The notes beneath the pieces are model-generated. The model saw nothing but the letters and a program-made list of their open reading frames with translations. It was not told the origin of the DNA and made no database searches. From Nitrososphaerota archaeon (GTDB taxonomy: Archaea > Thermoproteota > Nitrososphaeria > Nitrososphaerales > CADDZS01), in the NCBI GenBank assembly GCA_027886785.1, contig JAPCJV010000010.1, forward strand, positions 1 through 14,087: a stretch of 14,087 nt of DNA, read 5' to 3'. This document shows positions 1-14,087 of the stretch, in pieces (within the stretch, counting starts at the first letter, position 1; every line of letters begins with the position of its first letter). Made by a program: the position numbers and the translations under genes.

Positions 1-878
1 ACAGGTCGCCCGGTTTTAAGCGAAAGAGCGGCACAAATGTGCGCCACCTCCATCGTAGATTTCGCACCGTAGCTACCTCCAACCATCGGGACGATCAGGC
101 GCACTTTCGAGGGAGGAAGGTTTAGGACGCGGGCTAATTCTCCCCGTAACCTGTGAGGAAGAACGGACTCGGCCCAGACGGTTATTCCCCCGTCGAACTC
201 TACCCTCGCCAGTGCCGCGTGTGGTGCCATGGGACAAGACTGAGCCTTTGCGGTGGTGAATTTGTTTTCAAAAAGATAATCTGCAGTCTCAAACGCACGC
301 TCCGGATCTCCGACATTGACAACAGCGAATCCCGAGACATTCTTCTTCGGAGCGCCCACGCTCGCATGATGCGTTCCGGATTTCGCTTTGTCTTGGGGAA
401 CCTTCTTTTGGTATTTTTGATAATCAGGATGCAGCACTATCTTTTCATCTTCGGCAATGGCCCGCTCGGCATCGAATATTGCTGGCAACGGATCATACTG
501 TACTTCAATCAGCGACAACGCTTTCTGAGCAATCTGTGGTGAGTCAGCTGCCACCGCAGCCACTGCTTCGCCCACGTATCTGACCCGGTCTTTCGCGAGC
601 ACGTACCTATCCTGTACAATGCTTCCGTAGCGCACTTCGGGCAAATCTCTCGCAGTTAAGACCGCGATCACGCCCGGAAGCTTCTCAGCTTTCTTAGTGT
701 CAAACGACACTATGTTTGCGTGAGGTTGCGAGCTCCTCAGAATTGCTCCGTGCAACATCCTGGGCAGCTCCATGTCAGCGGCGTACATGGTTTTACCAGT
801 GACGATGTATCGAGTCTCTTCCCTCGCGTGGGACAAGCCGATCTGAGATGTTTTCTCGACCTGCTTCTGGAGGGACAT
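1..878 (-). CDS. Molybdopterin-binding subunit of a xanthine/aldehyde dehydrogenase-family Mo hydroxylase (partial, C-terminus beyond left edge)
   Basis: This reading frame is open from an ATG at 878 to the left edge: 292 codons, against roughly 750-800 residues usual for the family. The N-terminal hammerhead domain is at about residues 20-140, with G-T/K-x-x-Y-A-A-D at 28-35, H-x-x-I-L-R-S at 43-49 and YVGEAVAAVAAD at 101-112. The molybdopterin domain then begins, with M-x-P-H-A at 217-221 and VGGSYGAK at 266-273, the counterpart of the usual GGGFGGK loop. Residues about 143-185 form a Lys/His-rich insertion not typical of the family. Such subunits oxidise aldehydes, purines, CO or N-heterocycles by water-derived hydroxylation, together with FAD and 2Fe-2S subunits. 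Neither partner is in the window; they may lie past the left edge. A CTTAT box sits 37 nt upstream. Family assignment is secure; the substrate is unknown. Confidence 0.9.
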   Translation of the reverse strand, partial: MSLQKQVEKTSQIGLSHAREETRYIVTGKTMYAADMELPRMLHGAILRSSQPHANIVSFDTKKAEKLPGVIAVLTARDLPEVRYGSIVQDRYVLAKDRVRYVGEAVAAVAADSPQIAQKALSLIEVQYDPLPAIFDAERAIAEDEKIVLHPDYQKYQKKVPQDKAKSGTHHASVGAPKKNVSGFAVVNVGDPERAFETADYLFENKFTTAKAQSCPMAPHAALARVEFDGGITVWAESVLPHRLRGELARVLNLPPSKVRLIVPMVGGSYGAKSTMEVAHICAALSLKTGRP

Positions 879-910
879 GATTTTTCACAAATTATTCAGA
901 GTAGCCGCCC

Positions 911-915
911 ATAAG
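911..915 (-). promoter_or_regulatory. Probable archaeal TATA-like box of the Mo-hydroxylase gene
   Basis: On the minus strand this reads CTTAT (context CCTTATGGG), with its first base 37 nt upstream of the ATG at 878. A start site about 26 nt downstream would leave a leader of under 10 nt. The same box occurs at similar distances before several other genes here. The A/T-rich TTTTTAGATA just upstream is an alternative box. Confidence 0.4.
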
Positions 916-927
916 GATATCTAAAAA

Positions 928-940
928 TTGGGTCAACGAT
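928..940 (-). promoter_or_regulatory. Upstream element ATCGTTGACCCAA, one of two near-identical copies
   Basis: On the minus strand this reads ATCGTTGACCCAA and ends 50 nt before the ATG of the Mo-hydroxylase gene. A copy identical at 12 of 13 positions (ATCCTTGACCCAA) lies at 7184-7196, 47 nt before the ATG of the fused E1 gene, on the same strand. Matching orientation and distance suggest a shared activator site or an extended promoter element. The function is inferred. Confidence 0.35.
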
Positions 941-964
941 CCATTCGAACTTGGATACATCTGT

Positions 965-980
965 CTTCCAAAAGTGGAAG
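965..980. repeat. Perfect inverted repeat between BKACE and the Mo-hydroxylase gene
   Basis: CTTCCA-AAAG-TGGAAG: a 6-bp stem with a 4-nt loop, 29 nt beyond the BKACE stop codon. No T-run follows on the minus strand, so it is not a standard terminator. The half-sites TTCCA/TGGAA recur with a 2-nt spacer at 1974-1985, which favours a protein-binding site or an RNA-processing hairpin. Confidence 0.4.
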
Positions 981-1008
981 GCAATGAAACCCATATGTCG
1001 TTCGTAAT

Positions 1009-1905
1009 CTAAATGCCTAAAATCTCACGCGCTTCCTTTGGCGTGGCAACTTCATATCCCAATTCTTTCATAATCCTCACTGCCTTAGAAACAAGATCTA
1101 CGTTGGACTTTGCGACCTCAGTCTTGCTCAAACGTATATTGTCCTCGAACCCCACTCGGATCCCATTTGCATCCAGCAAGAGGGCCTGGGTGATCATGGG
1201 AAATTCGTCCCTGCCCATGGCGCACGTTGACCAGATAGAACCCTTTGGCAGCGCTTCGTAAAAAGTGATCAGATTCTTTGGCGTCGCCGGAGTCACGATC
1301 GACATGACGAATTGGCAATACAGCGGCGTATCCAGCGTCCCCTCCTCCGCCAGCTCTTTTGCTACCTGAATGTGTCCTAAGTCGTAAATTTCCAGCTCCG
1401 GTTTCACTTTGTATTTTTTCATGAGGCGCACGAGTTCCCGCAGCCACGGAACAGTGTTGAACGAAATCGTGCCCCACTTTGCTATTTGTCTGCCCGGCAA
1501 TTCCGCCTTAGGGCGTCTTGCGATCGGCCCCATGTTGAGAGACGCAATGTCCGGTTTCAGCTTGAACCTTTCCTCGAAGATCTCAAAGTCCGTCTCGGGA
1601 TTGCCCCACAGTACTCCGTCAGGGCCGTATGCCGATCTCCCGTTTCCCGTACTCACGTTGACCAGGATGTCGCACCTCTTTCGGATTGCGGGGATGTACT
1701 CCTTATTGATCGCATTCATTTTCTTGCCGTCGAAGACGTGTAACCCACTAACCGGATCACGCGCATGCAGGTGAACAACCGAAGCACCTGCTTCGTAGCA
1801 CCTGTAGATTTCGTCTACGATCTCGTCCACCGTCACTGCAAGAGTTGGTACTTCCTTTCTTGAAATGAAACCAATCGGGGTAACTGTGATGATTGTTTTC
1901 GGCAT
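1009..1905 (-). CDS. Beta-keto acid cleavage enzyme (BKACE, DUF849; Kce-like)
   Basis: 298 residues, the normal length for the family. BKACEs are Zn-dependent TIM-barrel enzymes that condense a beta-keto acid with acetyl-CoA, giving acetoacetate and a shortened acyl-CoA; Kce of lysine fermentation is the founding member. Visible motifs are H-L-H-A-R-D-P at 45-51, whose two histidines match the Zn ligands, NVSTG at 83-87, E-I-Y-D-L-G at 172-177 and VGFEDN at 251-256, whose Glu matches the third Zn ligand. I chose ATG 1905 over the in-frame TTG at 1923. A TATA box at 1932-1939 predicts transcription from near 1909, leaving 1923 outside the message. The gene diverges from the E1 alpha/beta operon and is followed on its own strand by the Mo-hydroxylase gene. 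The substrate cannot be read from the sequence. Confidence 0.93.
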   Translation of the reverse strand: MPKTIITVTPIGFISRKEVPTLAVTVDEIVDEIYRCYEAGASVVHLHARDPVSGLHVFDGKKMNAINKEYIPAIRKRCDILVNVSTGNGRSAYGPDGVLWGNPETDFEIFEERFKLKPDIASLNMGPIARRPKAELPGRQIAKWGTISFNTVPWLRELVRLMKKYKVKPELEIYDLGHIQVAKELAEEGTLDTPLYCQFVMSIVTPATPKNLITFYEALPKGSIWSTCAMGRDEFPMITQALLLDANGIRVGFEDNIRLSKTEVAKSNVDLVSKAVRIMKELGYEVATPKEAREILGI

Positions 1906-1931
1906 GCGACTAACACAAGCCAATTGTCCAC

Positions 1932-1939
1932 TTTATAAG
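1932..1939 (-). promoter_or_regulatory. TATA box of the BKACE gene
   Basis: On the minus strand this reads CTTATAAA (context GCTTATAAAG), with a purine-rich CGAAAAG upstream that could be a BRE. Its first base is 34 nt before ATG 1905. The predicted start site near 1909 gives an almost leaderless mRNA. It is one of the clearest archaeal promoters in the window and decides the BKACE start codon. Confidence 0.65.
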
Positions 1940-1973
1940 CGACACTTCTCTTTTCGGAAAGAATTTAGAATGG

Positions 1974-1985
1974 TTCCATTTGGAA
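1974..1985. promoter_or_regulatory. Dyad TTCCA-tt-TGGAA in the BKACE / E1 divergent region
   Basis: A perfect 5-bp inverted repeat with a 2-nt centre, lying between the divergent BKACE and E1 alpha genes. It could be an operator controlling one or both. The same half-sites occur at 965-980. A looser TTCCAATATTTTTGG lies before the fused E1 gene at 7174-7188. No regulator gene is visible in the window. Confidence 0.35.
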
Positions 1986-2007
1986 AATAAATCCGAGGGC
2001 CTCACTT

Positions 2008-3018
2008 TTGTCCATTCCTCCAACACAAGAAATGAAAAACTGGCTTCGCACAATGCTTCTAATTAGGCGGTTTGAAGAAGCTGCGAGCCGTCTACTAGAC
2101 GAAAAGAAGATCGTAGGAGGTCACCCCCTGTACATCGGACAAGAGGCTACGGCAGTCCCGGCAATCTCCCAGCTGGGAGTAGACGATTATCTTTTTTCTG
2201 CGCATCGCAACGTCGGTCACCTTCTATCGAAAGGATTTGCCCCAGGAAAGGTGATGGCAGAAGTGTTAGGGCGTTCCACCGGATACAACGGGGGCAGAGG
2301 GGGAAGCTATCATGTGTCTAGCGCTATGCTTGGCGTTCCCACAACCTCGGCAATAGTCGGTGCAAACATTGGACTTGCAGGTGGAGCGGCATACGCGGCA
2401 AAGTCCCTAGGAAACGGAAGAATTGCAATGTGCATGATAGGCGACAGCGTGCCAGAGGAGGGTTCATTTTATGAGTCGGTGAATATCGCAAGCCTCCTAG
2501 TGCTTCCCGTCGTGTACATTTGTGAAAATAACAGTGGAAGCATAAAGACACCCACGCTTGTTGCTAGCGAGATTATCGATACGGTAAAGCCCTTCAAAAT
2601 CCCCGCCGTCGCTGTCGACGGTTCCTCTATAGGAGAAGTGTACCGTGAAGCAAAATTAGCCGTCGAGCGCGCGCGAAGAGGGGACGGTCCGTCCTTGATC
2701 GAAGCAAGAACTACTGTGCTGACAAAAGGTGAGACGGGAGGGTATCGACCGCCTTCTTTTGAAACGGACGTTAGGGCAGCTTGGGACGATTCTCTTGCGC
2801 CAGCTGCATTTAGAGACTGGTCTTTGCATCAGGATGGATTGGTTCGCTTTATCCGAGAGGTACTCGGCTCGGGCGTGAGCAAAGACGAGATAATCAATAT
2901 CGACAGACAAGTCCAACACGAAATGCAGGATGCCCTGCAGTTCGCAATGGACAGCCCGTGGCCCAAACCAGAGAGCTCCCTAGAAGGGCTGTATCCCTCG
3001 AGTGCTTCGCAGAGATAA
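2008..3018 (+). CDS. Divergent E1 alpha subunit, ThDP-dependent 2-oxoacid/acetoin dehydrogenase family (AcoA/PdhA-like)
   Basis: 336 residues, normal for E1 alpha. In the family this subunit binds thiamine diphosphate and decarboxylates a 2-oxoacid (or acetoin) with E1 beta, then passes the acyl group to an E2 lipoyl domain. The fold is clear: RTMLLIRRFEE near residue 14, IGQEA at 43-47, GGRGGSYH at 95-102, then GDS(145-147)...ENN(173-175), the ThDP/Mg motif. Three catalytic histidines seen in the fused E1 of this window (its H41, H70, H246) align here with P40, V69 and L238, and GDG has become GDS. Activity may be altered or lost. The TTG start at 2008 gives the family's usual N-terminal length, with GAGGG 8 nt upstream; ATG 2032 is the alternative. 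E1 beta follows after 15 nt. Confidence 0.88.
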   Translation: MSIPPTQEMKNWLRTMLLIRRFEEAASRLLDEKKIVGGHPLYIGQEATAVPAISQLGVDDYLFSAHRNVGHLLSKGFAPGKVMAEVLGRSTGYNGGRGGSYHVSSAMLGVPTTSAIVGANIGLAGGAAYAAKSLGNGRIAMCMIGDSVPEEGSFYESVNIASLLVLPVVYICENNSGSIKTPTLVASEIIDTVKPFKIPAVAVDGSSIGEVYREAKLAVERARRGDGPSLIEARTTVLTKGETGGYRPPSFETDVRAAWDDSLAPAAFRDWSLHQDGLVRFIREVLGSGVSKDEIINIDRQVQHEMQDALQFAMDSPWPKPESSLEGLYPSSASQR

Positions 3019-3033
3019 GGAAGGTAGGAAATC

Positions 3034-4011
3034 ATGCGCGAGTCATCCTATTCAGACGCATTGATTCAGTGCTTCGAGCGTGTTCTCCTGAAGGACGATC
3101 GCGTTTTCATCCTTGGGGGCTCTCTCTTCTTCGGTGTGACACCAACAGCCGAATTGTTCCGAAAACTGGTAGACAAATATCCCAAACGCATCCTCCGTCC
3201 TCCCACATCGGAGTTCGGCTTTTGCGCGTTGGCCGTTGGAGCGGCGATGTCAGGAATGAGGCCCATCGTCGATATCGGGACTGCCAGCTTCGTGTTCAAC
3301 GCGTGGCCGGTTGTGATCAACGAGGCTAGCAACGCGCATTATTTGAACAACGGTCAAACGAAGGTACCGATAATTTTTCACATGATGCATGGGATACGCG
3401 GAGGAGCCGGAGTTCAACATTCCCACAGCCCGCAGAGTATGCTCTGGAACACCCCCGGACTGGAAATCATGCTTCCCTCTTCTCCCGCGGATCTGATCGG
3501 TCTGTTCCAGACTGCCCTAAATAGGGAGAATCCGGTTGTATTCATAGACCATGCCAAACTGTTCGGCACAAGTGGGCAAGTACCTGACGAAGTTGGTTAT
3601 TCGATTCCCTTTGGCAAAGGAGAAATCAAACGAGAAGGGCGAGATGTTACCATGGTTGCTACTTCTCTGATGGTTCAAACAGCAATAAGAGCAGCTACGA
3701 AGCTGTCTGCTGAAGGCATCGAGGTTGAGGTTGTTGATCCCAGAACTATTGTTCCCTTGGACAAGGAAATTATTCTGAATTCGGTTGCAAAAACTGGACG
3801 TCTGATTGTGGCTGATGAGGGTCAGCGAAGTTGTGGGATTGCGTCGGAAATTTCAGCCATAGTTGCAGAGGAGGGATTCAAAAGCCTGAAGTCCGGAATT
3901 AAGCGAGTTACTATTCCGGATATTCCGGTCGCATTCAGCAAACCCCTCGAAGAGTACGTCAGCCCCTCCGAAGATCGTATTATCGCGGCAGTCCGTTCCG
4001 CTGTCAAATAA
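3034..4011 (+). CDS. E1 beta subunit, ThDP-dependent 2-oxoacid/acetoin dehydrogenase family (AcoB/PdhB-like), partner of the divergent E1 alpha
   Basis: 325 residues, the usual E1 beta length. It should form the alpha2beta2 E1 with the gene immediately upstream. The ThDP-pyrimidine glutamate is present in P-T-S-E at 57-60, followed by LAVGAAMSGMRPIVD at 66-80. The substrate-side histidine is in GVQHS at 126-130, and the C-terminal transketolase domain contains V-V-D-P-R-T-I-V-P-L-D and VADEG. The early GED motif of canonical E1 beta chains is replaced by GGS at 28-30. The gene is translated from an ATG with an SD-like AAGGTAGG a few bases upstream, as expected inside an archaeal operon. A T-rich terminator follows. 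No E2 or E3 lies nearby, so the acyl acceptor is unknown. Confidence 0.9.
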   Translation: MRESSYSDALIQCFERVLLKDDRVFILGGSLFFGVTPTAELFRKLVDKYPKRILRPPTSEFGFCALAVGAAMSGMRPIVDIGTASFVFNAWPVVINEASNAHYLNNGQTKVPIIFHMMHGIRGGAGVQHSHSPQSMLWNTPGLEIMLPSSPADLIGLFQTALNRENPVVFIDHAKLFGTSGQVPDEVGYSIPFGKGEIKREGRDVTMVATSLMVQTAIRAATKLSAEGIEVEVVDPRTIVPLDKEIILNSVAKTGRLIVADEGQRSCGIASEISAIVAEEGFKSLKSGIKRVTIPDIPVAFSKPLEEYVSPSEDRIIAAVRSAVK

Positions 4012-4032
4012 CACAGCTCAGGGGGATGGATA

Positions 4033-4061
4033 TTTTTTAACACCCCGTTATCCGTCTTTTT
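4033..4061 (+). terminator. Probable T-rich archaeal terminator after the E1 alpha/beta operon
   Basis: TTTTTT at 4033-4038 and TTTTT at 4057-4061 begin 21 nt after the E1 beta stop. A weak GGATA/TATCC inverted repeat lies between and around them. Archaeal transcription commonly ends at oligo-T tracts, so this likely separates the operon from the next gene. That gene would need its own promoter in 4062-4133. Confidence 0.45.
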
Positions 4062-4133
4062 AGCATGATAGATCTTTCATTGTTTTATCCATCACGCACT
4101 TTTTGTTTTCGAGCGGAGAGCGCGAAATAACCA

Positions 4134-5135
4134 TTGCAATTTGGCGTAATGCTTCCAGTCCAGGGCCCTGTTACAAACGCGAGAGCGATCGGCGAAGCTG
4201 CCAAGGAGGCAGAGTCACTGGGTTACATTTCTGCTTGGGTGCATGACGGTCACCTCACTCGACAAACCAATCAAAAATTCTCGGTTTGTGGATCTGTCGA
4301 GTCCTTCAAGGAGGGATCAGATCCCGATTTCTACGAGCCAATGACTACCCTAAGCTACGTCGCAGGAGCTACGAGATCGGTGAAGCTGGGCAGCTGCACC
4401 TTCATCCTGCCACTTTATGACCCCATCATCCTCGCCCGGCAGGCAGCAGCTCTGGACAATCTTTCGAATGGGCGTCTAATATTTGGCGTTTCGATTGGGG
4501 GTAGTCCCGCGCTTGGAAAATTCTTCAAGATTCGCAACCTGACTTTTGAGGAACGCGGCAAGATCTTTGACGAATATTTGCGAGCAATCCGAGCGCTGTG
4601 GTCCGAGCCGATCAGCTCCTTTCAGGGAAACTACATAAAATTCTCAGACGTTGAGGTCTATCCCAAGCCGCGGAGCAAGAAAATATACGTTGGGGCCTCC
4701 ACGAAACCCAGGGGGATCAGAAGGCTCGCTGAGCTCGCGGACGGCTGGATGCCGTCACACACGCTCACGCCGAAGGAAATCAGACAAGCTGTGCTGCGAA
4801 TAAAGGAAAAACAAAAGTTCTACGGCCGGGACAAGATCGATTTCGAAGTAATCCAGCGCAGTTACGCTTGCGTAGCCGAAACAACGCAGGAAGCTTGGGA
4901 AATTTCGGCAAAGACGGTGGGCCTAAGGGCACCTCAGGGAGAAGAAAAAGAATCCAGCGGCGCCCTAATCGGAACAAAGCAGGACGTACTCGATCGAATT
5001 CAAGAGTTCAAAGAAGCTGGGATCTCGCATCTGGGCATCTATCCTATTTTCAGAGGCTCAGAATCCGAGGACTTGTACCGATCGATGAAAACTTTTGCAG
5101 AAGAAATAATTCCGCATTTCGATTCCGACAATTAG
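4134..5135 (+). CDS. LLM-class (luciferase-like, F420- or flavin-dependent) oxidoreductase
   Basis: 333 residues, typical of the bacterial-luciferase/Mer-like family, whose members use F420 or FMN. The TIM barrel opens with MQFGVMLP and continues with EAAKEAESLGYISAWVHD at 22-39. It then shows VKLGSCTFILPLYDPIILA from residue 84, LSNGRLIFGVSIGG near 109-122 and the C-terminal GTKQDVLDRIQEFKEAGI segment with its usual G-x-x-x-x-V pattern. The TTG at 4134 is preferred because family members begin M-x-F-G; ATG 4149 would cut into the first strand. CTTTTTGTTTTC, 35 nt upstream, may be a degenerate TATA box. The gene converges on the fused E1 gene, with 16 nt between stop codons. Cofactor and substrate are not determinable; F420 would fit an archaeon. 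Confidence 0.9.
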   Translation: MQFGVMLPVQGPVTNARAIGEAAKEAESLGYISAWVHDGHLTRQTNQKFSVCGSVESFKEGSDPDFYEPMTTLSYVAGATRSVKLGSCTFILPLYDPIILARQAAALDNLSNGRLIFGVSIGGSPALGKFFKIRNLTFEERGKIFDEYLRAIRALWSEPISSFQGNYIKFSDVEVYPKPRSKKIYVGASTKPRGIRRLAELADGWMPSHTLTPKEIRQAVLRIKEKQKFYGRDKIDFEVIQRSYACVAETTQEAWEISAKTVGLRAPQGEEKESSGALIGTKQDVLDRIQEFKEAGISHLGIYPIFRGSESEDLYRSMKTFAEEIIPHFDSDN

Positions 5136-5151
5136 CTAATAGGAAAAAGAG

Positions 5152-7137
5152 CTATTCAGACATAGTCTTCAGGCATGCCTCGGCTATTTTCTGAGTGGAA
5201 GGAACAAATTCCCGTTCGAGCGTTGGACTGAAAGCCAGCGGTAGATCAGGCGAGGTAACTCTGCGCACAGGATGTTCCAAGAAATAGAGGCATTTCTCGG
5301 CGACGAGGGCGGCTACTCTATTCCCCCATCCCCCAGCGTTCGGAGATTCATCCACAATGACTACCGTCCCGGTCTTTTCCACCGAAGAAATGATCGTAGC
5401 CTCGTCCAACGGAACAAGGGTTCTGAGATCTAATACTTCCGCCGAAATACCCCTAGCACTGAGGTAGTCTGCAGCTTCCAAAGCCTCACTCACCATCCAC
5501 ATGTTAGCTACTATTGTGAGATCGGACCCTTCCCGCGCGATCCTCGCTTTTCCCAGCGGAAGCGTATAGTAATCGAAGGGAACACTGGACGACTTCGAGT
5601 AAAGGTGCTTGTGCTCAAAGAAAATTACCGGGTCGTTGCCGGAGAGAGCCGCGCAGAGCAGTCCCTTGGCGTCGTACGCATTTGAGGGAGTGACGATCTT
5701 TATTCCGGGTGTCGCTGAAAACAGATTGTCCAGGACCTGCGTGTGGGTCGCGCCCCAGCCCTCTTGGAATCCGCATGCAGTTCGGATCACGAGCGGTACG
5801 CTAGACTTTCCCCCGCTTATCCAGCGCTTTTTTGCGATTCCATTTCCAATCGCATCCATTGCCAGCATGATAAAATCGGAGTACATGATCTCCACAACGG
5901 GCCTGTAACCGGCAAGCGAGAGCCCCAGGGCGACGCCCAGCATGGAACCCTCCGAAATGGGCGTGTCCCAAATTCGCTTTGGACCGAATGCCTCGAGTAA
6001 ACCCTCGGTCACTTTGAAGACACCTCCCCACTTTGCCACGTCTTCCCCGAATATCAAGATCCTCTGATCCTTCTCCATAGATAGTTTCAGAGCCGAGTTT
6101 ATCGCGGCCCGCATAGAGACCCTTCCCTCGGCCGGATTCTTGGGAAGTACGGCATCGTATTTCTGATCAGAATAGAGTATTTGTTCCATGTGCAAAGGGT
6201 CAGACGGGGGAGCGTCGAGTGCGCTTTGTAATGCGGTGTTTACTTCCTCCTCAACCGAGCGATGGAGTGTTGCGTCGAGCGCTTCGCTCAAGAGCCCTTT
6301 GTCAAAAAGTTTCCTTTGGTAGATTGCAATCGGATCCCTGGTTTTCCAAGCTTGTTCCTGCTCTTCGTATCCTGTCTCCTTGTTTTTATCGCGTAGTGCA
6401 TGCCCTGTCATTCGATAAGTTTTGAACTCAATGGCGAAGGGCCCTCCCTCCTTCCTGATGTGTGCGAGCGCCCTAACTGTTGCAGCTTTGACTTCCTCTA
6501 CATCATTTCCCCCGGAGCTCTCCGCGGAAATCCCAAATTCTCTGATTAGATGCGTAAGTTCTTCTACTTTCGTCGTTTCTGACCTGGAGGTGTGTTCACT
6601 GTAAAGATTATTCTCTACTACAAAGATCACCTTCGAACCGAACAGGGCGGCCATGTTCATCGATTCGTAAAAATATCCGATGTTCGTCGCTCCGTCACCG
6701 AAAAAGCAAACTGCAACGGCGTCACTGTCCCAGCGTAACTTCAATCCGAGGCCAAGGCCCGTCGCCACCGGAATCCCTCCGCCGACCACCGAGAAGTTTC
6801 CTATGAATCCAATTCTTTCTTCCGTAAGATGCATCGAACCCCCATAACCGCCATTGCTCCCGGTGGCCTTACCGAGGACTTCTGCAATGATTTCGTTCAT
6901 CGGAACTCCCTTTGCAAGTGCGGCGACATGTCCGCGGTAGGTGCCGACCACGAGGTCATTCTTCGTAAGACACGAAATTACCCCGACGGAGACCGCCTCT
7001 TGCCCGATCCCTAGATGGGTCGTCCCTTGAACCACCTTCTTCTCGAAAAGTTTTGAAATCTCCTCCTCCATTCTTCGTGCCCGGATCAGATCAACGTAAA
7101 CTTCAATCTCGGGACTATTGTACCCCGTGTCGGGCAT
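5152..7137 (-). CDS. Fused E1 alpha-beta 2-oxoacid dehydrogenase component (canonical active site)
   Basis: 661 residues, joining E1 alpha (about 1-325) and E1 beta (about 338-661) in one chain. Fused E1s of this size are known in several bacteria. They perform ThDP-dependent decarboxylation of pyruvate, branched-chain or related 2-oxoacids. The alpha half is canonical: T-H-L-G-I-G-Q-E-A with H41, Y-R-G-H at 67-70, GGSMH at 99-103, GDGATN at 147-152 with ENN at 175-177, and T-G-H-A-L-R-D at 244-250. In the beta half, FGEDVAKWGG is at 363-372, D-T-P-I-S-E at 391-396 carries the ThDP glutamate, and H465 matches the E1 beta histidine. The ATG at 7137 begins about 30 nt after CACTTTTTTC, a weak TATA candidate. 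No E2, E3 or lipoyl-protein gene is visible, so it must use a partner encoded elsewhere, or another electron or acyl acceptor. Confidence 0.93.
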   Translation of the reverse strand: MPDTGYNSPEIEVYVDLIRARRMEEEISKLFEKKVVQGTTHLGIGQEAVSVGVISCLTKNDLVVGTYRGHVAALAKGVPMNEIIAEVLGKATGSNGGYGGSMHLTEERIGFIGNFSVVGGGIPVATGLGLGLKLRWDSDAVAVCFFGDGATNIGYFYESMNMAALFGSKVIFVVENNLYSEHTSRSETTKVEELTHLIREFGISAESSGGNDVEEVKAATVRALAHIRKEGGPFAIEFKTYRMTGHALRDKNKETGYEEQEQAWKTRDPIAIYQRKLFDKGLLSEALDATLHRSVEEEVNTALQSALDAPPSDPLHMEQILYSDQKYDAVLPKNPAEGRVSMRAAINSALKLSMEKDQRILIFGEDVAKWGGVFKVTEGLLEAFGPKRIWDTPISEGSMLGVALGLSLAGYRPVVEIMYSDFIMLAMDAIGNGIAKKRWISGGKSSVPLVIRTACGFQEGWGATHTQVLDNLFSATPGIKIVTPSNAYDAKGLLCAALSGNDPVIFFEHKHLYSKSSSVPFDYYTLPLGKARIAREGSDLTIVANMWMVSEALEAADYLSARGISAEVLDLRTLVPLDEATIISSVEKTGTVVIVDESPNAGGWGNRVAALVAEKCLYFLEHPVRRVTSPDLPLAFSPTLEREFVPSTQKIAEACLKTMSE

Positions 7138-8760: not shown

Positions 8761-8824
8761 ACATTCACAGCTTCAGTTAAGTTGGCTGGAATCTTCAGAG
8801 GTAGAAGTCTCGTGCTACGAGATA

Positions 8825-8839: not shown

Positions 8840-8845
8840 CATGTC

Positions 8846-9715
8846 TTACTCTTTTTCCTTCTCCTTTCGTTTTTCTTTCTCCCAGTTGAAGGTTTCAAAT
8901 CCTGGGCGATACTTTTTCTCCGTGATAAACTGTTCAACACCTTTCTTCCATCGACCTCCTGTTTTGAGGCCCAAAATTTCGTATTGTGACATGCTGAAAC
9001 GCTCGATCTGCTCATAGTTCATGTCCTGCCCGGCAATGAAAGCTTCTTTCGTAGCTCTCAGAGCCTCGGGATCTTTTTCTCTGATCTTACTTGCAATTTT
9101 CCAAGTGAATTCTTTCAGTTGGGAGCGTGGAACGGAAAAGTTCACAAATCGAATATTCTCGGCCTGTTTACCGTTGAAAGTTTCTCCGGTAAAAGCATAG
9201 TACAAACAGTCTCTAAAACTTACCCAGGTGGGCCATTCTTTGGGTATAACGCCCCCTGGCATTATACCCCAATTAATTTCGGAAAGACCGATAGTTGCTT
9301 CGTCTGCCGCCACTGCCAGATCGCACGTGAGCGCAACTCCCGTACCCCCTCCGAAACAATAGCCATTTATCATGGCGATGGTAGGCGCTGGAAAATATCT
9401 AAGAAGACGATGCCGCCACAAATAGGAAGCCGTTGTCGCTCGCATTCTCGCGACAGGATCATTGGCGGTATCATAGAAATATTCCTTAACGTCCTGACCA
9501 GCAGTAAAAGATTCATCACCCGCACCAGTGAGTATGAGAACTCTTGTTTTGCCCTGCGTAGCTTCAAGGGTTAATTCTTCCAGAGCCTCCACCATTTCGT
9601 GGTGCATCGTGGGATTCATTGCATTGCGTTTTTCTGGTCGGTTGAAAGTAAGAGTAACTATTCCATCATCATTTGTTATCTTGATCGTCTTGAATTGGTA
9701 CTTTTCCGATTGCAT
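8846..9715 (-). CDS. Hydroxycinnamoyl-CoA (feruloyl/coumaroyl-CoA) hydratase-lyase-like crotonase
   Basis: 289 residues. It resembles hydroxycinnamoyl-CoA hydratase-lyase, which hydrates feruloyl- or coumaroyl-CoA and cleaves it to the benzaldehyde and acetyl-CoA. Shared blocks with Pseudomonas HCHL, as I recall it, are NRPEKRNAMNPT at 25-36, LTGAGDESFTAG at 62-73, KEYF at 77-80, PTIAMINGYCFGGG at 111-124, LSEINWGIMPGG at 144-155 and the C-terminal GGR...KGVEQF...KYRPG. E146 matches catalytic Glu143, and Y79 matches the phenol-binding Tyr75. Ser123 is replaced by G126. By my alignment Tyr239 corresponds to M242. The para-hydroxyl pocket may therefore differ. The last 11 residues are an unusual run of Lys, Glu and Arg. 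A TATA box 32 nt upstream makes the message essentially leaderless. A general enoyl-CoA hydratase is the alternative. Confidence 0.8.
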   Translation of the reverse strand: MQSEKYQFKTIKITNDDGIVTLTFNRPEKRNAMNPTMHHEMVEALEELTLEATQGKTRVLILTGAGDESFTAGQDVKEYFYDTANDPVARMRATTASYLWRHRLLRYFPAPTIAMINGYCFGGGTGVALTCDLAVAADEATIGLSEINWGIMPGGVIPKEWPTWVSFRDCLYYAFTGETFNGKQAENIRFVNFSVPRSQLKEFTWKIASKIREKDPEALRATKEAFIAGQDMNYEQIERFSMSQYEILGLKTGGRWKKGVEQFITEKKYRPGFETFNWEKEKRKEKEKE

Positions 9716-9736
9716 AACTAAATTTCAAGTTAAATC

Positions 9737-9747
9737 ATTTATTTAAT
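9737..9747 (-). promoter_or_regulatory. TATA box of the hydratase-lyase-like gene
   Basis: On the minus strand this reads ATTAAATAAAT, starting 32 nt before ATG 9715. Its centre is about 26-27 nt from the start codon, which predicts a leaderless transcript. It is a strong archaeal-type promoter match. Confidence 0.55.
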
Positions 9748-9816
9748 GGTTTGTCGTTTTTCAGAACAAGCTAAAATCGATATGCCGAATGAGGCGAAAT
9801 AATTGTTCACACCTCG

Positions 9817-9828
9817 ATGAAATTTCAT
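9817..9828. promoter_or_regulatory. Perfect 12-bp palindrome in the divergent intergenic region
   Basis: ATGAAATTTCAT lies in the 224-nt gap between the divergent hydratase-lyase-like and DUF3891 genes. It is about 100 nt from one start and 112 from the other. Its position suits a shared operator, but A/T-rich palindromes arise easily by chance. Confidence 0.3.
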
Positions 9829-9875
9829 TTTCATTTTCGCCAAGTTAGGAATTGAAATTGATTAATCGTACAATC

Positions 9876-9884
9876 CATAAATAG
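9876..9884 (+). promoter_or_regulatory. Candidate TATA box of the DUF3891 operon
   Basis: CATAAATAG, which would start transcription near 9906 and leave a leader of about 34 nt. An alternative box, CAATTTAGG at 9909-9917, would give a leaderless message. I cannot choose between them from sequence. Confidence 0.3.
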
Positions 9885-9939
9885 CAACTCCAATCGTTGC
9901 GTCTCATTCAATTTAGGGAAAAGTGATTTAGCTAGCGAG

Positions 9940-10782
9940 ATGCTCTTCATTGAAAATAACGAAAAGATCGTAATTGTGTTCCAGCACGACCACGCCGATC
10001 TTTCGGGTCAAATCGCCGCGCACTGGGGCAACGAGCGATTCGCACAACCAACGCCATTTGAAGAGATTGTATACACATCTGCCGTACATGACATGAGCTG
10101 GATCTTCTGGGATTACTATCCGCTCAAACTAACCAGTGATCAGAAGCCGATTCCTTGGCTTCAGATGAGAAAGTATGCCTTTGAGGAGTTTTCGAGATTT
10201 TATGGAATACAAATTCGAGGGGTCGGCCCGCACCATCAGTATGCAACACTGTTGCTCGCGATGCACGCGGCGGGTCTGTACAAGGGCAGATATGGAACTC
10301 AACCGTCTCATTCTTCGTTGCAGACCGTAACAAGGCCAGAGTGGCAGGATGACATTGACCAACTGGAAAAATTACAGCGAGAAGCAAAGCATCATCTGCT
10401 GAAATCGCCGGATAGTGCTGAATGGATCTCTGACAAGATCCTGTGGACTAATTACAAGCTGCTCGAGGTGTGGGATCGCCTTTCACAATATTTTATCGGA
10501 CGGGACGACAACATAGTGAACAGTACACTCAATCCGGTGCCGCTCTCTTACGACGGCAGGGAGACCCAGCTGAAATTGCAAAGAGGCGACAACGAGAGAA
10601 TAGACCAACCCCATAAATCAGTCAAAATTTCTCCCTATCCTTTTGTCGAGGATCCTCAGACCTTTTTCTTCAAAGCGGTGGAAATTCCCAACAGGAGTTA
10701 CTCCAATGAGAAAGAGTTGACAAAATCGATTTTGAAAGGAAAAAGGATAAACTTTGAGATGACTGCTACTGCTGGCAGTTGA
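9940..10782 (+). CDS. DUF3891 family protein, function unknown
   Basis: 280 residues, matching the DUF3891 family in length and motifs. It has QHDHADLSGQIAAHWG at 15-30, a His-Asp pair in SAVHDMSWIFWD at 47-58 and PHHQYATLLLAMHAAGLY at 97-114. The conserved His and Asp residues and the helical character are reminiscent of metal-binding HD-like hydrolases, but I know of no demonstrated activity. No signal peptide or membrane segment is seen. The Gfo/Idh/MocA gene follows after 24 nt on the same strand, so the two are probably co-transcribed. The C-terminal 80 residues are Lys- and Arg-rich. The operon context suggests a catabolic accessory enzyme; that is inference. Confidence 0.82.
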   Translation: MLFIENNEKIVIVFQHDHADLSGQIAAHWGNERFAQPTPFEEIVYTSAVHDMSWIFWDYYPLKLTSDQKPIPWLQMRKYAFEEFSRFYGIQIRGVGPHHQYATLLLAMHAAGLYKGRYGTQPSHSSLQTVTRPEWQDDIDQLEKLQREAKHHLLKSPDSAEWISDKILWTNYKLLEVWDRLSQYFIGRDDNIVNSTLNPVPLSYDGRETQLKLQRGDNERIDQPHKSVKISPYPFVEDPQTFFFKAVEIPNRSYSNEKELTKSILKGKRINFEMTATAGS

Positions 10783-10806
10783 ATAACGTAAGATAGGTAG
10801 CAAACC

Positions 10807-11820
10807 ATGAGTCAACCCTTTGATCCTGTTGGAGTGGCGATAGTAGGGATTGGCTTCGGACCCTGGAGCGCATCTGGAAGACACGCCAAAGCCCTGAAGC
10901 AAAATAAGAAAATGAAACTCGTCACCTGCTACAGCCGGTCAGAAGAAAAAAGAAAGAGATTCAGTCAGGAGAACGGGTGCGAAGCCAACCAAAGCTATCA
11001 AGCTGCACTGGCGAGGAGCGACGTCGAAGCAATCATTCTTGCGACTCCTAACAGCACCCACGCGGGTCTGGCAATTGAAGCGCTACAAAGCAGAAAGCAC
11101 GTCTTCATCGAGAAGCCTCTCGCCACCACTTTTCGAGACTGTATGAGAATTAAGGATGCAAACCGCAGCGTAGGCTCGGTAATAGCAGTGGGTCAGTTCT
11201 GGCGCTTCCTTCGCAGACATCGTTTGCTGAAATCCATGATCGATGAAGGCAAACTCGGAACTCTGCTTATGGCCGAGGGAAACGAGTCCGTTAGGGCGGC
11301 GATGAATTTGACCGAAAATAATTGGCGCTGGCACGCGACTGAGAGAGAACTGGTCTTGTTCAACTCGGCAATTCACCCCCTCGATACTCTTCGCTATTTG
11401 CTCGGGGAAGTGGAGGACGCGTGTGGGTTTCTGACGAAGCGGGTAACTCAGGGTGAGCTGGATGATACTGCGTGTACATCTTTGAAGTTCAAATCGGGGG
11501 TCCTTGCATCCTTGATCGCGACCTACGCTTCCCCCCGAAGAACCTACCTCAACATCTACGGAACCGAAGCCAACGCCTTCGCCGACGAATCCGGTTTGTC
11601 TGTCATGACGAAGGATGCGAAGCAACCTGAAAGTGTCTCACTTACCGAGTTAGATCCGATCGAAGCTGAGCAAGTAGACTTTGCCGAAGCTATCAGACTC
11701 AAGCGGAAACCGGAAGTGGACCTGGACGAAGGATCGGCGAATGTGGCAGTTGTAGAAGCCCTAATAAGATCCTTTGAAAAGCGCCGGTATGTATCTATCA
11801 GTGAAGTACTCGAAGAATAA
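10807..11820 (+). CDS. Gfo/Idh/MocA family NAD(P)-dependent oxidoreductase (possible LigC role)
   Basis: 337 residues. An N-terminal Rossmann domain carries VAIVGIGFG at 10-18, ATPNSTHAGLA at 79-89 and the family's E-K-P at 102-104. The C-terminal alpha/beta domain has AIHPLDTLRYLLG at 188-200, where H190 and D193 occupy the usual catalytic positions. The family oxidises sugars, inositols and related substrates. It also contains LigC, the dehydrogenase for the hemiacetal of 4-carboxy-2-hydroxymuconate semialdehyde, the ring-cleavage product of LigAB. The LigA-like gene begins 50 nt downstream, so a LigC-like role is attractive but rests on context only. ATAGGTAG 6 nt before the ATG may serve as an internal SD, consistent with translation from the DUF3891 message. 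Confidence 0.9.
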   Translation: MSQPFDPVGVAIVGIGFGPWSASGRHAKALKQNKKMKLVTCYSRSEEKRKRFSQENGCEANQSYQAALARSDVEAIILATPNSTHAGLAIEALQSRKHVFIEKPLATTFRDCMRIKDANRSVGSVIAVGQFWRFLRRHRLLKSMIDEGKLGTLLMAEGNESVRAAMNLTENNWRWHATERELVLFNSAIHPLDTLRYLLGEVEDACGFLTKRVTQGELDDTACTSLKFKSGVLASLIATYASPRRTYLNIYGTEANAFADESGLSVMTKDAKQPESVSLTELDPIEAEQVDFAEAIRLKRKPEVDLDEGSANVAVVEALIRSFEKRRYVSISEVLEE

Positions 11821-11840
11821 ACATTGACTCCTCCGAAGGG

Positions 11841-11848
11841 CTTATTTG
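11841..11848 (+). promoter_or_regulatory. TATA box of the LigA-like gene
   Basis: CTTATTTG, starting 30 nt before the GTG at 11871, with purine-rich CCGAAGGG just upstream as a possible BRE. The predicted transcript begins at or next to the start codon. This gives the small gene its own promoter despite the 50-nt gap from the upstream gene. Confidence 0.5.
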
Positions 11849-11870
11849 TTTCTACGACTCGTTCTAGCCT

Positions 11871-12185
11871 GTGAGCGTCAGCGGAGTCAGCAAATTCATC
11901 TTTGAATTGTACGCAGCTGACCTGACCGAACTAAGGAAGTACAAAGCATCACCCGAAGAAGTGTTGAGTCGTTACGAGCTTTCTTCCGAGGAAAAGAAGG
12001 CAATTCTTGCAAAGGACTACGCAACACTGTACTGCCTGGGAGTCCATCCCGTTCTCATCAGTCACATAGTGCAAATCGATGAGGTCGCAAACGAGAGGAA
12101 CGCGAACGAGGCTTACACAAAAGAGTACTTTTCAAGAATAAAGGAATGCTCTAACGATTATCAAGACTATTACGAAAAAAACTGA
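11871..12185 (+). CDS. LigA-type small subunit of a LigAB-family extradiol dioxygenase
   Basis: 104 residues starting at GTG. The LigA fold is a small helical subunit capping the active site of protocatechuate 4,5-dioxygenase. Family features are KFIFELYAADLTELRKYKAS at about 8-27, then P-E-E-V-L-S-R-Y-E-L-S-x-E-E at about 28-41 and the signature L-Y-C-L-G-V-H-P-V-L near 53-62. About 35 further residues, rich in Glu, Asn and Tyr, extend past the core. Database entries of this family are often mislabelled protocatechuate 3,4-dioxygenase. The likely partner is the LigB-like protein on the opposite strand, with only 17 nt between stop codons. Such subunits are normally co-directional or fused, so convergent placement is odd. 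A stem with T-rich tail follows the stop. Confidence 0.85.
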   Translation: MSVSGVSKFIFELYAADLTELRKYKASPEEVLSRYELSSEEKKAILAKDYATLYCLGVHPVLISHIVQIDEVANERNANEAYTKEYFSRIKECSNDYQDYYEKN

Positions 12186-12204
12186 CCCCTAAAGGGTTTT
12201 CTTT
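12185..12204 (+). terminator. Hairpin plus T-rich tail between the convergent LigA-like and LigB-like genes
   Basis: ACCC-ctaaa-GGGT followed by TTTTCTTT, beginning at the last base of the LigA-like stop codon and running into the LigB-like stop codon. It would end the plus-strand transcript before it runs antisense through the LigB-like gene. Confidence 0.4.
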
Positions 12205-13030
12205 ACACGTTCCAAGCGACCGTGGGACACGTTCCCCATCGTGGCACTCGCGGGCACTCGACCAATTCAGGCTTGGTGTCACCTACAACTCCGAGAAGTG
12301 AAAGATAATTTAGAAATTCGGCCGTCGCGTTGCCCGCCCTGAAAATCCTACGCAGGTCCATTTTATCATAAAATTCCTCAGGAGTGCCAGCCTTCATCAG
12401 GTTTAGGGCAAGATCGTCAAATTCGTCGTCACTTTTAGCGTGCCTTGGCCCTGCTAGGTCCAAAGAAAGATTGATGCTGCCGAGAACGGCTACCCTTTCA
12501 TGCCCGCGATACTGCTCAATCGCTTTGGAGATGACCCTACCCAGGAAATGAAATCTCTGCATCGAAGGGATTGGCGGAACGAGGACGTTTGTAAAGATAG
12601 GAACTATAGGAATCTGGCCGCCAGGAGACATGAAGCTCAGGGGAACTACGAATGCATGATCCATTCTAAAATCGCTTATGCGTGCAAAGTCAAGATTGCT
12701 TCTGATCCCCTCTTTGAGCATGAATCGGGAAAGGTCTTCACTCACCGCACCTTCGTAGGTCGGAATGCCCTGTTCATGTTCTATGGGGAAGGGACCCTGC
12801 GCCCGGTTTGTAATCCCCACGCAAAAAGAGGGCATGTTATCCAGGAAAAACTGGTCAATGTGATCGTTAGCAATGATGACTATGCAATCCGGCGAAGATT
12901 CCTCGAGCCTTTTTCTTAATTTGCCGAATGACTCCAGCGCGGAATTTTTGGCAGCTTCCGGTGCAGAATCCCAGTTTCTGTAGATCGTCGGCCGATGAGT
13001 CATGCCCAATGTCGCAACTAAGCGAGCCAA
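12203..13030 (-). CDS. LigB-type extradiol ring-cleavage dioxygenase catalytic subunit, catalytic histidine replaced
   Basis: 275 residues of the LigB superfamily, whose Fe(II) enzymes open catecholic rings. Compared with LigB of Sphingobium, as I recall it, the iron ligands are conserved: H12 in GMTHRP, H57 in A-N-D-H and E238 in RAGNATAEF. H125 in MDHAFVVPLS also matches. The catalytic-base segment, GTGGMSHQLQGPR in LigB, reads GSINLSLDLAGPR here, so His195 is replaced by L190 (codon TTG at 12461-12463, checked in the DNA). Iron binding is expected but normal ring cleavage is doubtful. The TTG start at 13030 fits the family N-terminus and lies 35 nt after a CTTAT box. The LigA-like gene converges on it. 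It may act on an unusual substrate or by a different mechanism. Confidence 0.85.
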   Translation of the reverse strand: MARLVATLGMTHRPTIYRNWDSAPEAAKNSALESFGKLRKRLEESSPDCIVIIANDHIDQFFLDNMPSFCVGITNRAQGPFPIEHEQGIPTYEGAVSEDLSRFMLKEGIRSNLDFARISDFRMDHAFVVPLSFMSPGGQIPIVPIFTNVLVPPIPSMQRFHFLGRVISKAIEQYRGHERVAVLGSINLSLDLAGPRHAKSDDEFDDLALNLMKAGTPEEFYDKMDLRRIFRAGNATAEFLNYLSLLGVVGDTKPELVECPRVPRWGTCPTVAWNV

Positions 13031-13056
13031 ACTGTTGAGACGGAACTCCGCTCATT

Positions 13057-13065
13057 ATTCATAAG
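13057..13065 (-). promoter_or_regulatory. TATA box of the LigB-like gene
   Basis: On the minus strand this reads CTTATGAAT with purine-rich AGGAAGG upstream. It starts 35 nt before the TTG at 13030, and transcription near 13034 gives an almost leaderless message. This supports the TTG as the true start. Confidence 0.55.
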
Positions 13066-13179
13066 CCTTCCTAAAACTCAAGAAAAATCTATTCGCTTGA
13101 AACTCTTCCGAGTCGCTAGTTTGCCCTAAAGAAACATATTAACTTCCAAATCGCATCCCTCAGAAAATTCCTTTCAAAT

Positions 13180-13210
13180 TTAGAATTCTTTGTTACACGA
13201 TGAATTCTAA
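13180..13210. repeat. 9-bp perfect inverted repeat, candidate operator
   Basis: TTAGAATTC (13180-13188) and GAATTCTAA (13202-13210) are separated by 13 nt, with arm centres 22 nt apart, about two helical turns. It lies in the 240-nt gap between the divergent LigB-like and deacetylase-like genes and ends 28 nt before the TATA box of the latter. That placement suits an activator or repressor site. Confidence 0.4.
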
Positions 13211-13237
13211 CCCAGTGGATTGAAGATCTAGGAAACG

Positions 13238-13246
13238 CTTATGTAA
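13238..13246 (+). promoter_or_regulatory. TATA box of the deacetylase-like gene
   Basis: CTTATGTAA preceded by purine-rich AGGAAACG (possible BRE). It starts 33 nt before ATG 13271, which places the transcription start at about 13269. The message would be leaderless. Confidence 0.55.
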
Positions 13247-13270
13247 TCTAATCAATCACGCCGTTTTCTG

Positions 13271-14087
13271 ATGACTCTCCCAGGAAGGAGGCAGCCAATC
13301 AAATGGCCAAATGATGCGCTGTTACTTGTTTCACCTACTCTAGCATTTGAAACGTGGCCAGAAGATCTGGGAATGCCTGGCTCACTCAACGTGGGTATCG
13401 GAAAGCCACTTCCAAGGTCGGCCGTGTTCAAAAAAGACATTCTCACAATTTCTGACAGACAGTTTGGGGAACGAGTGGGAATTTACAGGTTATTGGACAT
13501 CTTTGAAAAACATGGTATCAAAACCACAGTTTTCTTGAATGGCAGAACGGTGGAAAGGTTACCTGAACTAAGCAAGGAACTAGACAAGTTAGGGCATGAG
13601 CTTGCTTCGGAAAGTTACATCCACGATTACAGCTACATGAAGACTCTGGAAGAAGAGAAGTTCGATCTGCATCGGAATGTGCAGGCTTTCAAAAATATCG
13701 TTGGAAAACCACCACTGGGGTACCTCTCGATGGGAGAAAGACCTTCGAATAATACTCCGCAGCTTGCTTTCGACGAAGGGTACACTTACTGGGTAGATCC
13801 GCAGCATGAGGAGCTCCCGTACACCCTGCAAGTGGATGGTGGCGAGCTGACCGTCATTCCATACATCCAGTACTTGAATGATTATGCTACGTTCTTAGGC
13901 GACGGAGGATCTCCCAGGCAGCTCTTGCAGACCTGGAAGGATACTTTCGATCAACTGTATAGCGAAGCGAGGACGAATCCCAATGTGATGATGTGGGGCA
14001 TGCATCCGTTCCTGACCGGGAGGCCTCACCGTGCCAAAGTTTTAGATGAGTTTTTAGAATATGTGGACGGCTTTCCACAAGTAGAAT
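13271..14087 (+). CDS. Polysaccharide deacetylase / PuuE (allantoinase)-like protein (partial, C-terminus beyond right edge)
   Basis: 272 codons are open to the right edge; relatives have about 280-320 residues, so most of the protein is present. It belongs to the NodB-fold branch containing PuuE allantoinase and HpPgdA-like amidohydrolases. The shared blocks are FGERVGIYRLLDIFEKHGIK at 65-84, VFLNGRTVERLP at 87-98, LGHELASES at 107-115, GKPPLGYLS at 145-153, D-E-G-Y-T-Y-W at 168-174 and IPYIQYLNDY at 196-205. The usual H-x-x-x-H metal motif reads ESYIH (114-118), so its first His is Glu. PuuE itself is described as metal-independent, which would fit. No signal peptide is visible, arguing for a cytoplasmic amide-hydrolysing role rather than cell-wall editing. 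A leaderless ATG follows a clear TATA box. Confidence 0.85.
   Translation, partial: MTLPGRRQPIKWPNDALLLVSPTLAFETWPEDLGMPGSLNVGIGKPLPRSAVFKKDILTISDRQFGERVGIYRLLDIFEKHGIKTTVFLNGRTVERLPELSKELDKLGHELASESYIHDYSYMKTLEEEKFDLHRNVQAFKNIVGKPPLGYLSMGERPSNNTPQLAFDEGYTYWVDPQHEELPYTLQVDGGELTVIPYIQYLNDYATFLGDGGSPRQLLQTWKDTFDQLYSEARTNPNVMMWGMHPFLTGRPHRAKVLDEFLEYVDGFPQVE

What the first reader, a model, noticed from the sequence alone, without database searches (positions are those of the whole stretch)
1..14087. Possible archaeal catabolic island for aromatic/hydroxycinnamate-type acids
A hydroxycinnamoyl-CoA hydratase-lyase homologue, LigA- and LigB-type dioxygenase subunits, a Gfo/Idh/MocA enzyme of the family that contains LigC, a Mo hydroxylase, BKACE, a TcuA-like flavoprotein and two E1 enzymes sit within 14 kb. 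Each could process an aromatic acid or its ring-opened product. Such a combination in an archaeon would be unusual. The CoA ligase, monooxygenase and lower-pathway hydratase/aldolase are missing here, so the pathway is incomplete as seen.
Basis: inference. Interest (0 to 1): 0.7.

Follow-up and report, generated by a model that had tools for sequence, protein, structure and literature searches.

The report
Archaeal-looking ring-cleaving enzyme lacking catalytic histidine
A DNA stretch that looks archaeal does hold a group of aromatic-type degradation genes, but key enzymes lack residues needed for the lignin-acid pathway suggested; instead its ring-opening enzyme belongs to a branch, not described in anything read here, in which an essential histidine is gone from one subunit while the partner subunit carries a conserved histidine of its own.

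Summary
The gene list is confirmed. The contig is probably archaeal: GCTTAT boxes lie 31-36 nt before four starts and 48% of Arg codons are AGA/AGG. No marker gene settles this.

A hydroxycinnamate-to-protocatechuate meta-cleavage pathway is not supported. The LigB-like protein keeps the LigB fold, Fe ligands and His127, but the essential base His195 is Leu190. The 74 such proteins among 102 tree rows form one side of a branch (100/98). The Gfo/Idh/MocA protein lacks two of three LigC/PmdC histidines. The crotonase passes the hydroxycinnamoyl-CoA hydratase-lyase cut-off, with changed pocket residues. No CoA ligase, phenol monooxygenase or LigI/J/K lies in the window. All 41 related loci are bacterial; 33 have a LigA-like gene, none the crotonase, BKACE, E1, TcuA or Gfo homologues nearby. 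Relatives of LigB and crotonase share a 200,930-bp contig length.

New: LigA partners of His195-less LigBs carry His-Pro (16 of 17) where canonical LigA mostly has Asn (His in 3 of 21). A catalytic histidine may have moved between subunits.

The parts
12203..13030 (-). LigB-like class III extradiol dioxygenase subunit; His12, His57, Glu238 (Fe ligands) and His125 kept, canonical base His195 replaced by Leu190
12461..12463 (-). codon for Leu190, at the place of LigB His195 / DesB His192 / MhpB His179
11871..12185 (+). LigA-like small subunit, convergent with LigB
   Evidence: Pfam PF07746 31.9 bits; homologues near LigB in other loci
12045..12047 (+). codon for LigA-like His59 (His-Pro motif), at the place of LigA Asn88
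8846..9715 (-). crotonase of the p-hydroxycinnamoyl-CoA hydratase/lyase subfamily; Tyr75- and Glu143-equivalents kept, Ser123 to Gly, Tyr239 to Met
   Evidence: NCBIfam NF006588 305 > 276; PDB HCHL 241 bits; residue table
10807..11820 (+). Gfo/Idh/MocA oxidoreductase, not LigC-like by catalytic motif
   Evidence: Pfam; PDB search, PmdC 9azo only 55.6 bits; motif from PMC11489326
9940..10782 (+). DUF3891 protein, 24 nt before the Gfo gene
   Evidence: PF13030 116.9 bits
7330..8718 (-). FAD-dependent dehydrogenase of the TcuA/flavocytochrome c group
   Evidence: NF006130 319.8 bits, below cut-off 369
5152..7137 (-). fused 2-oxo acid dehydrogenase E1 alpha-beta
4134..5135 (+). luciferase-like, probably F420-dependent oxidoreductase
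   Evidence: PF00296; TIGR03619 162.6 vs cut-off 166.9
2008..3018 (+). E1 alpha subunit (reads GDS where the fused E1 reads GDG)
3034..4011 (+). E1 beta subunit
1009..1905 (-). BKACE (beta-keto acid cleavage enzyme), start probably ATG at 1905 (first start codon of the frame: TTG at 1923)
   Evidence: PF05853 248 bits
3..878 (-). xanthine dehydrogenase-type Mo hydroxylase large subunit, incomplete
13271..14086 (+). PuuE-like polysaccharide deacetylase, incomplete
   Evidence: PF01522; TIGR03212 118 vs cut-off 425
11840..11845 (+). GCTTAT box 31 nt before the LigA start
13061..13066 (-). GCTTAT box 36 nt before the LigB start (TTG)
13237..13242 (+). GCTTAT box 34 nt before the PuuE-like start
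1935..1940 (-). GCTTAT box 35 nt before the BKACE start taken as 1905
9740..9746 (-). TTAAATA box 31 nt before the crotonase start

Best explanation
The window is part of the genome of an O2-using, probably archaeal heterotroph. It holds a loose cluster of short transcription units for breaking down organic acids. Its most distinctive part is a two-subunit class III ring-cleaving dioxygenase (LigA-like + LigB-like) of a branch that lacks the canonical LigB base. Shown by sequence and model: the fold, the 2-His-1-Glu iron ligands, the retained acid/positioning His125, absence of His195, and a His-Pro motif in the LigA partner. Inferred: Fe(II) binds a ring substrate and O2, and the ring is opened extradiol-fashion. 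The missing base is either supplied by LigA His59 or not needed because the substrate is not a simple catechol (for example a hydroxypyridone, hydroxypyrrole or aminophenol). The HCHL-type crotonase, BKACE, flavoprotein, E1s and F420 enzyme would handle other acyl-CoA and oxo-acid steps. That they act in the same pathway is not shown.
Against: No member of the branch is characterised in anything I read. The histidine exchange is confounded by shared ancestry and has exceptions: L020 has Gln in LigA, and L015:10930-11226, L017:6613-6927 and L030 have His in LigA although their LigB keeps His195. I could not place LigA His59 in space. The LigA-like proteins of L003 and L006 do not reach Pfam LigA at E 0.001. 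Six of 75 branch members also lost the Fe carboxylate (Gly 4, Gln 2), so some may not be oxygenases. No E1-fusion hit listed has the shared contig length.
Confidence: 0.5

Rival explanations
1. One reading: hydroxycinnamoyl-CoA is cleaved by the crotonase to a benzaldehyde, oxidised to protocatechuate or a relative, opened by LigAB and oxidised by the Gfo/Idh/MocA enzyme acting as LigC.
For: Crotonase passes the NCBIfam HCHL cut-off and keeps Glu143 and Tyr75. LigA and LigB are present. LigB and crotonase relatives share a contig length. One bacterial locus of the LigB branch (L006) has an AMP-binding ligase-type gene about 8 kb from LigB.
Against: LigB base His195 is Leu; DesB His192Phe has <0.01 U/mg against 116.1 (PMC3962378, passages). 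Gfo lacks two of three PmdC/LigC histidines. Crotonase Ser123 and Tyr239 equivalents are changed. No CoA ligase, aldehyde dehydrogenase, phenol monooxygenase or ligI/J/K in the window.
Confidence: 0.1
2. No shared pathway: an archaeon with many catabolic genes, and these are neighbours by chance in a gene-rich oxidative region.
For: Five strand switches and several separate upstream boxes. In the 41 loci no crotonase, BKACE, E1, TcuA, Gfo or DUF3891 homologue lies near LigB; Mo hydroxylase (L008, L009, L018, L025, L027), LLM (L009, L013) and PuuE (L002) homologues are scattered. No listed E1-fusion hit has the shared contig length.
Against: LigB and crotonase relatives at 62% and 82% identity have the same longest contig of 200,930 bp and both count two contigs, which suggests linkage within 200 kb.
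Confidence: 0.32
3. The LigB-like protein is no longer a dioxygenase but a metal-dependent enzyme of other chemistry (for example hydrolysis or lyase) on the same fold.
For: Absence of the base in a whole branch, loss of the Fe carboxylate in 6 of 75 members, and distant metal-binding relatives such as MEMO1 on the same fold.
Against: In the window's protein all three Fe ligands and His125 are kept, and the LigA partner is kept.
Confidence: 0.12
4. The contig is bacterial.
For: All titled relatives of LigB are bacterial. The few taxa named among the 120 listed crotonase hits (at 48-51% identity) and the one among the 120 listed E1-fusion hits (Actinomycetes, 40%) are bacterial.
Against: Archaeal-type boxes at similar distance before starts, and 48% AGR arginine codons vs 2-14% in 20 bacterial loci, which are higher in GC.
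Confidence: 0.22

Closest known systems
LigAB protocatechuate 4,5-dioxygenase (Sphingobium SYK-6, 1B4U/1BOU)
   Different: 21% identity; base His195 is Leu; LigA Asn88 is His followed by Pro; LigA and LigB genes convergent
DesB gallate dioxygenase (3WKU) and MhpB (8K04)
   Different: DesB His192 / MhpB His179 absent (needed for activity in DesB, PMC3962378); no fused LigA domain
Class III extradiol family proteins of Alphaproteobacteria, Armatimonadota and Vulcanimicrobiota (L001-L011), no characterised member known to me
   Same: No His195, Fe site kept, LigA with His-Pro motif in 10 of 11 loci (L007 starts at its contig end)
   Different: Bacterial, at most 45% identical; ABC transporter genes nearby and, in L003 (Pfam) and L002 (by eye), HpaB-type monooxygenase and flavin reductase
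p-hydroxycinnamoyl-CoA hydratase/lyase (Pseudomonas fluorescens 2J5I; NF006588)
   Same: Subfamily score over cut-off; Glu143 and Tyr75
   Different: Ser123 Gly, Tyr237 Phe, Tyr239 Met; its 13 nearest listed relatives are 54-82% identical and share the Gly; no CoA ligase in the window
PmdC/LigC CHMS dehydrogenase (9AZO)
   Same: Gfo/Idh/MocA superfamily; His181 and the following Asp kept
   Different: His177 and His178 replaced by Asn and Ser; other Gfo enzymes score higher (3db2 150 vs 55.6 bits)
PydA, annotated 3,4-dihydroxypyridine dioxygenase of Rhizobium TAL1145 (PF02900, named in PMC7356986)
   Same: LigB-family protein thought to cleave a hydroxypyridine/pyridone ring
   Different: Sequence not available here; whether it lacks His195 was not tested

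Membership tests
Protocatechuate 4,5-dioxygenase / canonical LigAB | LigB fold over the whole length | tested here: met
Protocatechuate 4,5-dioxygenase / canonical LigAB | 2-His-1-Glu Fe(II) site (His12, His61, Glu242) | tested here: met
   window H12, H57, E238
Protocatechuate 4,5-dioxygenase / canonical LigAB | Acid/positioning histidine (His127) | tested here: met
   window H125
Protocatechuate 4,5-dioxygenase / canonical LigAB | Catalytic base His195 | tested here: not met
   window L190; need for it from PMC3962378 passages
Protocatechuate 4,5-dioxygenase / canonical LigAB | LigA partner subunit | tested here: met
   PF07746 over cut-off; homologous to LigA-like proteins near LigB in related loci
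Protocatechuate 4,5-dioxygenase / canonical LigAB | NCBIfam score over the curated cut-off | tested here: not met
   best PRK13364 124.5 vs 290; PRK13372 79.1 vs 837
Hydroxycinnamoyl-CoA hydratase-lyase | NF006588 over cut-off | tested here: met
   305 vs 276
Hydroxycinnamoyl-CoA hydratase-lyase | Catalytic Glu143 (role recalled) | tested here: met
   kept in all 120 listed proteins (the window's own included)
Hydroxycinnamoyl-CoA hydratase-lyase | Phenol-contacting Tyr239 (role recalled) | tested here: inconclusive
   Met here, but not Tyr in most of the 120 listed proteins either (A 28, G 27, S 18, R 14, E 10 ...), so not diagnostic
Hydroxycinnamoyl-CoA hydratase-lyase | CoA ligase and aldehyde dehydrogenase nearby | tested here: not met
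   none in the window; outside the window not testable
LigC/PmdC CHMS dehydrogenase | WHHxxHxxD motif with His177, His178, His181 | tested here: not met
   window FNSAIHPLD, placed by eye from the translation and the motif in PMC11489326
Protocatechuate 4,5-cleavage pathway | LigI, LigJ, LigK | tested here: not met
   absent from the window; beyond the window no genome is held
Archaeal genome | Archaeal-type promoter boxes at similar distance before starts | tested here: met
   GCTTAT in -45..-23 of 4 of 13 genes, intergenic resampling 0.0009; CTTAT 6 of 13, 5e-5; motif chosen after looking, starts partly chosen (GTG, TTG, BKACE ATG)
Archaeal genome | Archaeal marker genes or placement among archaeal genomes | not testable with these tools
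   no tRNA or Rfam match in the window; no genome held

The most novel reading that the evidence does not exclude
A whole branch of two-subunit class III dioxygenases, with a probably archaeal member here, has moved its catalytic histidine from the large subunit (LigB position 195) to the small one (LigA position 88, His-Pro motif), so that the small subunit becomes a catalytic partner and the enzyme opens a non-catechol (possibly N-containing) ring.
Probability: 0.2. Interest if true: 0.7.

Novelty: new variant of a known kind. Interest (0 to 1): 0.45.

Why it matters
If archaea open aromatic or heteroaromatic rings with a LigAB variant, they take part in a step of carbon turnover usually credited to bacteria and fungi. 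If the catalytic histidine has moved between subunits, this is a clean, testable case of active-site residue migration in a well-studied enzyme family. It also warns that several metagenome proteins named 'protocatechuate 4,5-dioxygenase beta chain' (for example P0001, P0005, P0007, P0011) lack the residue that reaction needs.

Tried and rejected
Whole-genome search failed because no genome is held. I found no archaeal centre for the genome search: all 41 genome loci are bacterial by title, and the control genomes were named without handles. The E1-fusion search was meant to name the lineage and to test linkage; it did neither. Bacterial sigma-70-like sites (15, shuffles 11.9, sd 2.9) and terminators (9, shuffles 14.6) are not clearly enriched. 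tRNA and Rfam searches found nothing. Tyr239 as a diagnostic for HCHL was dropped after seeing that most listed relatives lack it. Literature: ten full-text searches were made, nine with listings and one with no paper. In their listings and in the passages I opened I saw no description of a His195-less LigB branch or of an archaeal HCHL + LigAB cluster; most subscription papers are not in that library. A hadal Thaumarchaeota paper reports catechol 2,3-dioxygenase and dihydroxyphthalate decarboxylase genes (PMC10773090, passages), so aromatic genes in archaea are not themselves new. In the Gagatemarchaeaceae and Angelarchaeales papers the words 'aromatic' and 'dioxygenase' do not occur in the main text (PMC10640624, PMC9038741, term counts and passages). 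Thermal-swamp paper PMC8027834: the passages opened place protocatechuate cleavage in Proteobacteria. Dropped rows: L020 from the residue table (its match was split in two pieces; one piece examined); P0060, L040 (short) and MhpB (partial) from the tree. L012 and L014 hold a further LigB-like gene each, examined but in no count.
Full report
What is there. Thirteen genes fill the 14,087 bases. The genes form several short units on both strands (five strand switches) rather than one operon. No tRNA and no Rfam family at gathering score is present.

Is it archaeal? No genome is held, so this rests on the window. GCTTAT occurs 8 times on both strands. Four of these lie 31-36 nt upstream of a start on the sense strand (BKACE, LigA, LigB, PuuE-like), and TTAAATA lies 31 nt before the crotonase start. 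GCTTAT falls in the -45..-23 stretch of 4 of 13 genes; resampled intergenic stretches reach this in 0.0009 of 20,000 trials. The shorter CTTAT falls there in 6 of 13 genes (5e-5). The motif was picked after looking at the upstream sequences, and three of the four starts are choices (GTG for LigA, TTG for LigB, an inner ATG for BKACE). Boxes at this spacing fit leaderless archaeal transcripts (general knowledge). AGA+AGG make 48% of arginine codons, against 2-14% in 20 bacterial loci of the LigB family, which are richer in GC. Bacterial promoter-like sites are not clearly enriched. Against: the named relatives are bacterial. I put archaeal origin at about 0.75.

LigA. The partner is a LigA homologue. 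Of the 17 loci whose LigB lacks His195 (L001-L014, L016, L018, L020), 16 have a related small protein within about 2 kb of LigB; L007 starts at its contig end and shows none. At the position of LigA Asn88 the count is: His in 16 of 17 LigA-like partners of His195-less LigBs (the window, L001-L006, L008-L014, L016, L018; L020 has Gln), each His followed by Pro, and His in 3 of 21 partners of His195-bearing LigBs or solved references (L015:10930-11226, L017:6613-6927, L030; the others Asn 14, Ala 2, Ile 1, Cys 1). This fits a histidine supplied in trans. But the two groups are also two sides of one branch, so shared ancestry alone could give the pattern, and I could not measure where the residue sits. 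The LigA-like proteins of L003 and L006 do not themselves reach Pfam LigA at E 0.001.

Neighbourhood of the branch. Pfam was run on 10 ORFs of L003 and on 10 from L006, L008 and L012. L003 has LysR, an ABC permease and NMT1-type binding protein, DUF2848, flavin reductase, HpaB-type monooxygenase, amidase and a borderline cupin. L006 has an amidohydrolase, an HbpS-like protein, a luciferase-like protein, an alpha/beta hydrolase and an AMP-binding ligase. L008 has RidA-type and gamma-glutamyltransferase proteins. L002 looks like L003 by eye. Such genes suit an N-containing ring (inference), though the ligase in L006 would also suit an acyl-CoA route. PydA, a PF02900 protein, is linked to cleavage of 3,4-dihydroxypyridine (PMC7356986, passages); I had no PydA sequence to test.

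Crotonase. It scores 305 (cut-off 276) for p-hydroxycinnamoyl-CoA hydratase/lyase, next family 130. Among solved structures HCHL entries come first (241 bits), then 6p5u, named enoyl-CoA hydratase (219), a feruloyl-CoA hydratase/lyase (172) and other crotonases from 115 down. Glu143 and Tyr75 are kept; Ser123 is Gly, Tyr237 Phe, Tyr239 Met. The 14 top-listed proteins (54-100% identity, the window's own included) all share the Gly. It may still act on a phenylpropenoyl-CoA, but a hydroxycinnamate cannot be assumed.

Gfo/Idh/MocA. Its best solved relative is a putative NADPH-dependent oxidoreductase (3db2, 150 bits); PmdC scores 55.6. The PmdC motif with His177, His178 and His181 (PMC11489326, passages) reads FNSAIHPLD here: two of three histidines are lost. 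It is not a LigC by this test.

Conservation. The scan of 84,980 species genomes found 41 loci, none archaeal by title, best 45%; an exact match to one of two peptide patterns was required, so relatives without them are missed. In those loci no crotonase, BKACE, E1, TcuA, Gfo or DUF3891 homologue lies near LigB; Mo hydroxylase homologues occur in L008, L009, L018, L025 and L027, LLM in L009 and L013, PuuE in L002. With a profile, 33 of 41 loci show a LigA-like protein. In the 5.8-billion-protein set, a LigB at 62% (P0005) and a crotonase at 82% (P0063) both list a longest contig of 200,930 bp and two contigs. Linkage within 200 kb is likely; adjacency is unknown. No E1-fusion hit among the 120 listed shows that length.

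Verdict. The specific hydroxycinnamate/protocatechuate pathway fails three tests (LigB base, LigC motif, missing pathway genes in the window). What remains of interest is a LigAB variant branch, and its presence in a probably archaeal contig.

Noticed in passing
L012, L013, L014, L016, L018: Within the His195-less LigB branch these members also lost the Fe-binding Glu242 (Gly in four, Gln in L018). L012 has a class II aldolase beside LigA; L014 and L016 have Rieske-like proteins nearby by eye.
   Followed up: partly
L025, L027; L015:5549-6295, L017:1282-2028: Other LigB relatives keep His195 but have Glu or Asp in place of His127, the reverse of the window's branch.
   Followed up: partly
window 2008-3018: The stand-alone E1 alpha reads GDS where the fused E1 (5152-7137) reads GDG in the thiamine-diphosphate motif (motif recalled); no E2/E3 gene is in the window.
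   Followed up: no
window 9940-10782: DUF3891 (unknown function) lies 24 nt before the Gfo gene; PF13030 was found in 1 of 7 searched genomes that hold related LigB genes.
   Followed up: partly
window 13271-14086 and L002:251-877: A PuuE-like deacetylase lies near LigB both here and in L002 (33% identical, about 9 kb away there).
   Followed up: no
L002, L003, L006, L008: A recurring bacterial gene set around His195-less LigAB (ABC transporter, LysR, DUF2848, HpaB/flavin reductase, amidase, RidA, amidohydrolase; not all in every locus) looks like an uncharacterised catabolic cluster.
   Followed up: partly
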